From contig JAQTWZ010000002.1 in assembly GCA_028689055.1 (NCBI GenBank), positions 9,503-73,502 of the forward strand: a stretch of 64,000 bases of DNA, read 5' to 3'. The translations under genes and the position numbers were made by a program. Positions 61,015 to 64,000 of this stretch are shown one piece after another. Positions within the stretch are counted from its first letter, which is position 1. Every line of letters starts with the position of its first letter. Origin of the DNA: Sulfurimonas sp. Lineage in GTDB: Bacteria; Campylobacterota; Campylobacteria; Campylobacterales; Sulfurimonadaceae. A model generated the notes under the pieces. The model searched no databases and was not told the DNA's origin. It was given only the letters and a program-made list of their open reading frames with translations.

Positions 61015-61074
61015 AAGTTACTTTTCTGATTTAAATTTGATTCTGATTATATCTAAAGAAGTTAAAAAACTCAT

Positions 61075-61352
61075 CTAAACACAACCAATAGCTGATTCAT
61101 CCAAAAAGGTAACATAGTTTTTTATTGTACCACTCATCATGCGAATAGCTTGGGGGAAATTAATATATTTTTCTCCTCTGAGCATATTTATTGTAACGTT
61201 TGTACTAAAAAAATTCTAGGAGCATTACAAGTACGAATCAAGGATGCAGCTTCACTAAATGTGACATCTTTGACATAGTGCATATTCGCAACACTCCAAT
61301 GAGTCGGATGCCTTTGTATGAATCTCTCTTGAGATAGACACTTGTTATAGCC
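61075..61352 (-). pseudogene. ISAs1-type transposase, C-terminal remnant with frameshift
   Basis: Minus-strand reading gives ...RHPTHWSVANMHYVKDV TFSEAASLIRTCNAPRI, matching the HW-x-(I/V)-E/A-N-x-LHW-x-LDVTF end of ISAs1 transposases. The frame then stops, but the next frame continues FSTNVTINMLRGEKYINF to a stop at 61075; the shift falls in a run of seven T near 61210. Everything upstream of about 61352 is lost, so the insertion sequence is dead. No gene symbol given. The last exact base of the element is not defined. Confidence 0.65.
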
Positions 61353-61444
61353 CTTCCCCCCCTTTTTTTCTCATTCCTATATGCTATAATGCGACTCTAA
61401 AAACCCTTCTGGAGCGTAATTGTCTGGGATATTTCTACCCAAAC
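61353..61444. other. Junction segment between IS remnant and cas9 relic
   Basis: Non-coding stretch with a GGGTAGAAATATCCC foldback, TATAAT and homopolymer runs (seven C, seven T). It probably holds the left end of the ISAs1-like element and deletion junctions. No intact gene is seen. Together with 61015-61074 and 61573-61664 it forms the gap between rrf2 and the GNAT gene. Confidence 0.4.
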
Positions 61445-61572
61445 GCGTCTTGACAACGCCAAAGATTTTCCATCTTTTGGATGTTTTCATCATCAACATT
61501 GACCAGTGTCCAACCGATAGAGGTAATCCCTAAATCTAAACCCAATATTATTTTTGAAATTTCAATTTTTAT
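61445..61572 (-). pseudogene. cas9 N-terminal relic
   Basis: Minus-strand frame from 61572 reads KIEISKIILGLDLGITS IGWTLVNVDDEN, the RuvC-I strand of Cas9 with the catalytic Asp (GLDLGITSIGW). The expected first codon is ATA instead of ATG and a stop lies directly before it. A second frame over the end reads KHPKDGKSLALSRR, matching the start of the Cas9 bridge helix (NPK-x-GxSLALxRR). So the first ~45 codons survive with an internal deletion and frameshift, then the IS remnant begins. No repeat array or other cas genes are in the window. Confidence 0.65.
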
Positions 61573-61664
61573 TTATGAAAAAACTTGTATCACAATATCA
61601 ATAGTTTATCCGAGTGAGAAACGAATGGACTATACTCTTTTCTTTTTTTTCATGACGTAGTTAT

Positions 61665-62072
61665 TTAGATTGAAGCTGAAATTCGTTTGATACAGAGGAC
61701 TGAATTTTCACTATTTGACAATTCTCCTTGTGCAAATTCACATAAAAACAAAATATTTTCACACATACATATTTTTGCGTAATCTTCAATGTATTCAAGC
61801 ATCATCTCAGAATATCCCTTCATCCTTTCTTTTTCATCCACAATAAAATCATATACACAAAGATGGCGTTTATACTGAAGCGTTGTATTTACACTCACTC
61901 CTGCAAATGTAACAATTTTTTCTCTTTCAAAGATACCAAACATTCGATATTTTGTGTGTTTCATGTCATAAATAAGGTCTTCGAACTCTTCATAAGAAAC
62001 TTTATCTCGTAATTGACGGACAACTAAATAAGCTTTATCTAATTCTTTTAAATCTAATTCTCTAATTTGCAT
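61665..62072 (-). pseudogene. GNAT acetyltransferase, probable frameshift near C terminus
   Basis: 135 aa. GNAT core: MFGIFEREKIVTFAGVSVNTTL, DFIVDEKERMKGYSEMMLEYI (acetyl-CoA loop, with RMKGYS in place of R/Q-x-x-G-x-G/A). After CENILFLCEF the usual end (HxxNAxxFYxxxGF) is missing, but the +1 frame reads NLHKENCQIV...SNEFQLQSK, which resembles it. A one-base change in the tail probably altered the gene; it may still produce a protein. Function unknown. Confidence 0.5.
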
Positions 62073-62356: not shown

Positions 62357-64000
62357 TCAACACTCTAACCTCTCCAACTGCAGATAAGCTATAAACTGTA
62401 CTACATGAGCCGTCGTAAAATAGATATTTTTTGGCTCACCGTTTAGCTTTATCTCAAGTGTGTAGATGTCGTTAAAATCTAAATGTTCTTTAAAAATATC
62501 AGGTAGGTTTTTATCGACTGCTTTATGTATTACTTCTATAATATTAGATATCTTAGCGCTTTCAAAGTTTTCTATATTTTCTATACGCTCCAAAAATATA
62601 GGTTCAAAAGCACCCCATTTTAGATTTGCACTACAGTTTCTGCATAGACATAAACTGTCTGCAGTGCTCACAAAGCTCTTTTTATTTTTTACGATTCTCT
62701 TATCATTCCAACTAAAAAACTCAAAAGAGTTTTGATTATCAGCTACTTTTCTAAATGTAAATCCACATATTTGACAATATCCTTTATATGTATTTTGTAA
62801 AAATCCTTTTATATCATTTTTTAGTTCGTCGTTTCTAGCTTTATTTTTATCAATAACTATAATCTTTTTTATAATCTCTTCTTTGCTTGTTTCTTCAAAA
62901 TTTTTTATATCTTCACTAACTTTTTTTATAAAATCATTTTTATAGTGCTCTTCATCAATGATAATATCAGGCTCAATATCTTCTTGCCATTGCGTAGTTT
63001 GAGATTTATGCTTTTCGATATTTTTTTCCGTGCTTAATGCTTCATTATTTTTATGTTTATTTTTTATTTGCTTATTATTTGAAGCTTTATCTTCTTTTTT
63101 TTGTTGATTATTTATTTTTGAGTTATTAATATTTTTTGATATATACTCAATTTTTTTAGTAGCTTCCTCTTCCGATAACTTATGTATATCTTGCCTTATT
63201 TCAAAGGAATCAATTTTGTTAAAATCAAAGATTTGAAAATAATCTTTATATTCATCTTGCAGTAACAATGGGCTTTTAGTAAAGCCGTAAAATTCAAATT
63301 GTGCTCTAGTAATTGAAATATAAAAATGTGCTAAGTTTAGAGTATTATCTTCAGAAATATAAACTATTATAGGAGCTTCTTCTCCTTGAATTTCATCAAT
63401 TGTGAAAAATATAAAATCATAATTTTCTATCTCAATATTTTTCTTAAAAAACCCGACTTCGTACTCTTTTTTCAATTGTTCATTTAACTGTAAAACGGTT
63501 AATATACTCTCTTTTTCATAGACTATCATGATTGGAAATTTATGTTCATATAAATCTATCTGCTGATTCCTAATATCAATCAATTTACCTAAAATGCTTT
63601 TGTTGGAGTAATATATATGAGGTTTTTGATATCTTTTCTTATTGAATTCTATTTGATCTTTATAATAATCTTTTTCTTTTGGGATTGATAATTCATCATT
63701 TGTTATTAGTTTTCTTACAATCAATGAAGCAGTTGCTAATTGATAAGTTTGTCTAAAATTTCTTGTAAAAATTATTTTTTCTATGTCTGCGTTTTGCGGT
63801 TCATAAATAACCGTTTTTTGTGTTTGTGCATTATCTCCAATAAGTATAACTCTTTGAAAAGCAATTTTAAACAAATCAATAACCTCTATTTGTTTTATTT
63901 GCTGGTATTCATCAATTAAGACAGTTTTTGGTATTTTTTTAAAAAATGAAAATTTAGGTTGAACTGATAAAATTGATTTTGTAAAAAATACTACATGAGC
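62357..64000 (-). CDS. UvrD-like superfamily 1 helicase with C-terminal zinc-binding domain (5' end outside window)
   Basis: The track start at 63874 is a TTG inside a frame open to 64000; the added residues include Walker B VLIDEYQQ, then VILIGDNAQ (motif III), so this is a UvrD-like SF1 helicase cut by the window edge. Motif VI-like region YISITRAQFEFYGFT is present. A basic, low-complexity linker of about 130 aa leads to a cysteine domain CQICGF...CLCRNC resembling an HNH/treble-clef module but without the His pair. Such helicase-zinc proteins often belong to defence loci, consistent with the cas9 and IS relics nearby. Base composition is more AT-rich than the core genes. Confidence 0.75.
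   Translation of the reverse strand, partial: AHVVFFTKSILSVQPKFSFFKKIPKTVLIDEYQQIKQIEVIDLFKIAFQRVILIGDNAQTQKTVIYEPQNADIEKIIFTRNFRQTYQLATASLIVRKLITNDELSIPKEKDYYKDQIEFNKKRYQKPHIYYSNKSILGKLIDIRNQQIDLYEHKFPIMIVYEKESILTVLQLNEQLKKEYEVGFFKKNIEIENYDFIFFTIDEIQGEEAPIIVYISEDNTLNLAHFYISITRAQFEFYGFTKSPLLLQDEYKDYFQIFDFNKIDSFEIRQDIHKLSEEEATKKIEYISKNINNSKINNQQKKEDKASNNKQIKNKHKNNEALSTEKNIEKHKSQTTQWQEDIEPDIIIDEEHYKNDFIKKVSEDIKNFEETSKEEIIKKIIVIDKNKARNDELKNDIKGFLQNTYKGYCQICGFTFRKVADNQNSFEFFSWNDKRIVKNKKSFVSTADSLCLCRNCSANLKWGAFEPIFLERIENIENFESAKISNIIEVIHKAVDKNLPDIFKEHLDFNDIYTLEIKLNGEPKNIYFTTAHVVQFIAYLQLERLEC

What the first reader, a model, noticed from the sequence alone, without database searches (positions are those of the whole stretch)
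61445..61572. Cas9 relic with RuvC-I and bridge-helix fragments
GLDLGITSIGW and GKSLALSRR lie in two frames within 130 bp, in the correct order for Cas9, with the start codon also lost. This points to a former type II CRISPR-Cas locus at this spot, destroyed in this lineage.
Basis: partly seen in the sequence, partly recalled or inferred. Interest (0 to 1): 0.65.

Follow-up and report, generated by a model that had tools for sequence, protein, structure and literature searches.

The report
Collapsed second CRISPR-Cas9 locus in Sulfurimonas
This short stretch is the collapsed remains of a type II-C CRISPR-Cas9 immune locus (one decayed repeat, the first bit of cas9 and the start of its guide-partner RNA), while the same bacterium still keeps an intact, closely related copy elsewhere, so it is a real but ordinary molecular fossil.

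Summary
Both Cas9 motifs are at the stated place on the minus strand, in two frames. DNA across 61465-61634 is 89% identical to the 5' end of an intact 982-aa cas9 in the same Sulfurimonas genome (contig C7). The relic is larger than reported. Collinear with the intact locus, 61344-61653 holds a decayed array-end repeat with its flank, cas9 codons 44-57 and 1-28, the mutated start codon (ATG to ATT), the tracrRNA anti-repeat and the T-run. cas1, cas2, nearly all of cas9, the rest of the array and the tracrRNA tail are gone. A 55-bp deletion between two 11-bp direct repeats explains the two frames exactly. A type II-C locus was destroyed here, but the lineage kept the system. The intact copy lies beside tRNA-Ser(GCT), the position it also holds in relative G110, so the relic looks like an extra copy. 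In the relatives compared, no cas9 lies next to rrf2. The relic sits at a synteny break, against a transposase remnant, at the edge of an accessory block with defence-like genes. It most likely has no function; its anti-repeat could still pair with the live array's repeats, but nothing shows expression. Interest is low.

The parts
61344..61390 (+). Degenerate terminal CRISPR repeat (array end on the cas2 side)
   Evidence: TTTCTCATTCCTATATGCTATAAT against TTTCTCACTCGGATACGCTATAAT of the intact array; about 10 extra bases in the C/T run
61391..61444 (.). Flank between array and cas2
   Evidence: 61367-61443 is 79% identical to C7:564-640; the G110 flank is much more diverged
61445..61486 (-). 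cas9 codons 44-57 (GKSLALSRR, start of the bridge helix), out of frame with the next piece
   Evidence: 40 nt 93% identical to C7:4757-4796; tblastn
61475..61485 (.). Junction of the 55-bp deletion: the single remaining copy of the 11-bp direct repeat TTTTGGATGTT
   Evidence: two copies 55 bp apart in the intact gene, C7:4786 and C7:4841
61475..61560 (-). cas9 codons 1-28 (RuvC-I, GLDLGITSIGW), start codon ATG changed to ATT, A18T
   Evidence: 3 differences in 90 nt from C7
61561..61600 (.). Former divergent promoter region between cas9 and tracrRNA, decayed
   Evidence: 12 of 36 positions differ from C7, whereas C7 and G110 differ at 3 of 36
61601..61634 (+). tracrRNA anti-repeat
   Evidence: 33 of 34 nt as in C7; duplex with the intact repeat -34.9 kcal/mol, shuffled mean -9.7
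61635..61653 (+). T-rich end of the tracrRNA gene; the tail between anti-repeat and T-run is deleted
   Evidence: CTCTTTTCTTTTTTTTCAT against CTCTTTCTTTTTTTCAT in C7
61078..61343 (-). Decayed ISAs1-like transposase 3' end abutting the relic
   Evidence: HWSVANMHYVKDVTFSEAASLIRTCNAP; 45% identical over part of it to an annotated ISAs1 transposase, E = 5e-6; no Pfam match. Homology to relatives' rrf2 flank stops at 61069-61077

Best explanation
A nonfunctional remnant of a second type II-C CRISPR-Cas locus. A copy closely related to the intact locus on contig C7 once lay, or landed, between rrf2 and a GNAT gene. Deletions then removed cas2, cas1, cas9 codons 58-982 and nearly all of the array (about 4 kb), 55 bp inside the cas9 5' end (between direct repeats) and the tracrRNA tail; the start codon was lost. 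The remains and their homology are shown by sequence. The origin (duplication inside the lineage, or transfer from a sister species), the order of events and the absence of function are inferred.
For: Four collinear pieces in the intact locus's order and orientation; 89-93% DNA identity to an intact locus in the same genome; 55-bp direct-repeat deletion and start-codon change; only two Cas9 places in the genome, C7 intact and this one; relic closer to C7 (3/90) than C7 is to G110 (10/90) in the cas9 part; the C7 locus shares its tRNA-Ser(GCT) neighbourhood with G110, so the relic is the extra copy; synteny break on both sides; other broken type II loci in the genus.
Against: No relative shows an intact locus at this place, so arrival as an already truncated fragment is not excluded. 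The promoter part is far more diverged (12/36) than the rest (4/124; Fisher p = 3e-6), which simple even decay does not explain. The genome is a draft of 82 contigs and the join at the relic cannot be checked against reads.
Confidence: 0.88

Rival explanations
1. The fragment never was a working locus here: rearrangement or transposition brought an already truncated piece of the C7 locus, or of a sister species' locus, to this breakpoint.
For: Synteny ends on both sides; a transposase remnant abuts the relic; no relative has cas9 next to rrf2.
Against: Both extreme ends of a locus (array end and tracrRNA) are kept, as expected from internal deletion of a full locus; a random fragment would usually lack one end.
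Confidence: 0.15
2. The relic still works as an RNA element: the anti-repeat is transcribed and pairs with crRNA repeats of the intact array, acting as a decoy or regulator.
For: Anti-repeat 33/34 conserved and predicted to pair with the intact repeat at -34.9 kcal/mol, against -43.2 for the native pair; an intact Cas9 is present. Orphan type II arrays working with a Cas9 in trans are known in Enterococcus faecalis (PMC4894674).
Against: The equally dead cas9 piece is just as conserved (87/90), so no selection is needed; the promoter region is the most decayed part; no promoter or terminator call there; tail deleted and no stable fold (z = -0.8); no Rfam match.
Confidence: 0.04
3. Assembly artefact: contig C57 is misjoined at a CRISPR-derived sequence in a metagenome bin.
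For: Draft genome of 82 contigs; different neighbours in all relatives compared.
Against: The relic differs from C7 by mutations and deletions, so it is not collapsed or duplicated C7 sequence; both flanks have the identity to relatives expected for this genome, 91% and 94% to G020.
Confidence: 0.05
4. Chance similarity, or another RNase-H-fold protein.
For: None beyond the shortness of the protein fragments.
Against: 89% DNA identity over 170 bp that runs on into non-coding tracrRNA; E = 9e-11 at protein level in this window.
Confidence: 0.001

Closest known systems
Intact type II-C CRISPR-Cas locus of the same genome (G000 contig C7:24-5080)
   Same: Order and orientation, cas9 start, anti-repeat, array flank
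   Different: C7 has full cas9 (982 aa), cas1, cas2, nine intact repeats on C7 (three more at the end of contig C32) and a full tracrRNA; the relic has pieces only
Type II-C loci of other Sulfurimonas (e.g. STC_53, JAQTZE010000004.1, Cas9 87% identical)
   Same: Same Cas9 lineage and repeat type
   Different: Intact, and in the best comparison (G110) beside the tRNA-Ser(GCT) position, not next to rrf2
cas-less type II-C locus of G111 (L126:3689-4040)
   Same: Array end and tracrRNA left after loss of the cas genes
   Different: G111 keeps three nearly perfect repeats and a tracrRNA with its tail; found independently at another place
Orphan CRISPR2 of Enterococcus faecalis (PMC4894674)
   Same: cas-less type II CRISPR remnant in a species where some strains have a Cas9 able to use it
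   Different: CRISPR2 keeps full repeats and spacers and was shown to work with CRISPR1 Cas9; here one decayed repeat remains

Membership tests
Type II-C CRISPR-Cas locus (as a relic) | Cas9 homology (RuvC-I and bridge helix) | tested here: met
   89-93% DNA identity to an intact cas9; TIGR01865 match
Type II-C CRISPR-Cas locus (as a relic) | CRISPR repeat in the correct place and orientation | tested here: met
   one degenerate repeat at 61344-61390 with the conserved array flank
Type II-C CRISPR-Cas locus (as a relic) | tracrRNA anti-repeat complementary to the repeat | tested here: met
   61601-61634, duplex -34.9 kcal/mol with the intact repeat
Type II-C CRISPR-Cas locus (as a relic) | Parent system has only cas9, cas1 and cas2 (no csn2, no cas4) | tested here: met
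   C7 locus: cas9, cas1 (TIGR03639), cas2 directly next to the array
Functional type II CRISPR-Cas system | Complete cas9 open reading frame | tested here: not met
   about 42 of 982 codons left, no start codon, frameshift
Functional type II CRISPR-Cas system | cas1 and cas2 | tested here: not met
   absent between the array flank and the cas9 piece
Functional type II CRISPR-Cas system | tracrRNA tail (nexus and terminator hairpins) | tested here: not met
   deleted; no stable fold
Functional type II CRISPR-Cas system | Transcription of crRNA or tracrRNA | not testable with these tools
   no RNA data
RNA anti-CRISPR (Racr, solitary repeat unit) | Solitary repeat, usually behind a predicted promoter, on a virus or other mobile element | tested here: not met
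   repeat degenerate, no promoter call, chromosomal setting (definition PMC10651486)

The most novel reading that the evidence does not exclude
The tail-less anti-repeat left by a collapsed CRISPR copy is transcribed and titrates crRNAs of the cell's own intact array, a self-made RNA brake on type II-C immunity.
Probability: 0.03. Interest if true: 0.55.

Novelty: new member of a known kind. Interest (0 to 1): 0.17.

Why it matters
It records loss of one CRISPR-Cas9 copy beside a retained one and shows how such a locus collapses: both outer ends (array end and tracrRNA) survive while the cas genes go. With G111, G059 and G115 it indicates repeated decay of type II systems in Sulfurimonas. It is also a caution: a relic in a window does not mean the genome lost the system.

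Tried and rejected
Chance or another RNase-H-fold protein: excluded by DNA-level homology running into non-coding sequence. Loss of the whole system in this genome: excluded by the intact C7 locus. Intact cas9 next to rrf2 in relatives: none found among the listed matches; where rrf2 and cas9 share a contig (G115, G013, G019) they lie more than 500 kb apart. Self-targeting: C7 spacers have no match in the window with fewer than 9 mismatches of 30. The relic's deletion junction in other species: no exact match in genome contigs. Rfam: no match. Pfam did not recognise the transposase remnant; an annotated ISAs1 transposase did match. G040 match: 63 bp in an unrelated gene, chance.

Full report
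What is there. On the minus strand of 61445-61560 two pieces of cas9 are present: codons 1-28 with GLDLGITSIGW and codons 44-57 with GKSLALSRR, in different frames. The window is part of contig C57 of a 2.32-Mb Sulfurimonas draft genome (genus taken from named relatives; window = C57:9503-73502). A search of that genome with the relic DNA finds an 89% match on contig C7, which is the 5' end of an intact 982-aa cas9 (TIGR01865, 709 bits) followed by cas1 and cas2 and an array with nine identical 36-bp repeats; three more perfect repeats lie at the end of contig C32, so the array is probably split by contig ends.

Anatomy. Aligned with C7, the window holds four collinear pieces: the array-end repeat, degenerate, with its flank (61344-61443); cas9 codons 44-57 (61445-61486); cas9 codons 1-28 with the region upstream of the gene; and the tracrRNA anti-repeat (61601-61634) with the T-run that ends the tracrRNA gene. 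Missing are cas2, cas1, cas9 codons 58-982, the other repeats and spacers, 55 bp inside the cas9 5' end, and the tracrRNA tail. The start codon is ATT where C7 and G110 have ATG.

Not chance. In the window, tblastn with the intact Cas9 gives E = 9e-11 for the pair of fragments and nothing better than E = 4 elsewhere; the DNA match has E = 2e-57 in the whole genome and continues into non-coding sequence.

Position and history. In the closest relatives (G020, G110, G037) homology on the rrf2 side stops at 61069-61077 and on the GNAT side at 61661 to 61753; the two sides lie on different contigs there. In the genus tables (135 genomes, 44 with a Cas9-like match) no listed rrf2 match lies near a cas9 match. 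The intact C7 locus and the intact G110 locus share a neighbourhood: tRNA-Ser(GCT) and the genes behind it follow the tracrRNA in C7, and in G110 the same genes lie about 11 kb away, with a copy of the tRNA end next to the tracrRNA, as if an island had integrated there. So C7 is probably the inherited locus and the relic an extra copy. In the cas9 part the relic differs from C7 at 3 of 90 positions, C7 from G110 at 10 of 90, which places the split between relic and C7 after that from G110: duplication inside the lineage or transfer from a near sister (inference). The rrf2 side of the relic abuts the decayed 3' end of an ISAs1-like transposase gene; beyond the GNAT gene lies a block with a superfamily 1 helicase-like gene, a RhuM-like gene and an SNF2 helicase similar to DISARM DrmD. 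A CRISPR copy in a defence-rich accessory region that later collapsed fits this setting.

Function. The cas9 pieces cannot make a protein of use. The anti-repeat could still pair with repeats of the C7 array (-34.9 kcal/mol against -43.2 for the native pair; shuffled mean -9.7), but the tail needed for Cas9 is gone, the promoter region is the most decayed part (12 of 36), no promoter was called there, and the dead cas9 piece is as well conserved as the anti-repeat, so no selection has to be assumed. I regard it as nonfunctional.

Recurrent decay. G111, without a cas9 match, has three near-perfect repeats followed directly by a tracrRNA-like sequence with its tail, all cas genes missing between them (its only Cas1-like match is weak and elsewhere). 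G059 has a 104-aa cas9 stub of another lineage. The cas9 of G115 is interrupted. Orphan type II arrays are known elsewhere, e.g. CRISPR2 of E. faecalis, which works only with the Cas9 of CRISPR1 (PMC4894674). In C. jejuni, CRISPR-negative strains mostly have other genes or a transposase at the place of the locus (PMC4607530).

Unexplained. The uneven divergence of the relic (promoter part 12/36, the rest 4/124; p = 3e-6) does not fit even decay. Conversion of the cas9 end by the C7 copy, or a complex mutation in the promoter part, are possibilities not tested.

Verdict. It is an ordinary kind of genome fossil.

Noticed in passing
L126:3689-4040 (G111 contig C18): cas-less type II-C locus: three near-perfect repeats followed directly by an anti-repeat and tracrRNA tail, no cas genes between; a clean independent example of cas loss with the RNA parts kept.
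   Followed up: partly
L127:133-447 (G059 contig C33): 104-aa stub of a different Cas9 lineage (28% identical), with a truncated anti-repeat next to it.
   Followed up: partly
L129:2700-6862 (G115): cas9 interrupted by about 1.2 kb, with aa 227-246 present on both sides and stops in the N-terminal part; cas1, cas2 and array present.
   Followed up: partly
window 62357-64000 and L007:1-7305: Accessory block right of the relic: superfamily 1 helicase-like protein, two unknown proteins, a RhuM-like protein (PADLOC PDC-S05) and a 963-aa SNF2 helicase similar to DISARM DrmD; possibly an undescribed defence cluster.
   Followed up: partly
L073:4500-4540 and L097 (G110 contig C41): A copy of the tRNA-Ser(GCT) end next to the intact tracrRNA, about 11 kb from the tRNA gene, suggesting an island integrated between tRNA and CRISPR locus.
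   Followed up: partly
L005:24-587: The array of the intact locus contains an internal duplication: the spacer CATGCGAGATTC... occurs twice and the TAATCTTTTA... spacers are near-copies.
   Followed up: no
window 61561-61600: Promoter part of the relic is far more diverged than the rest (12/36 against 4/124).
   Followed up: partly
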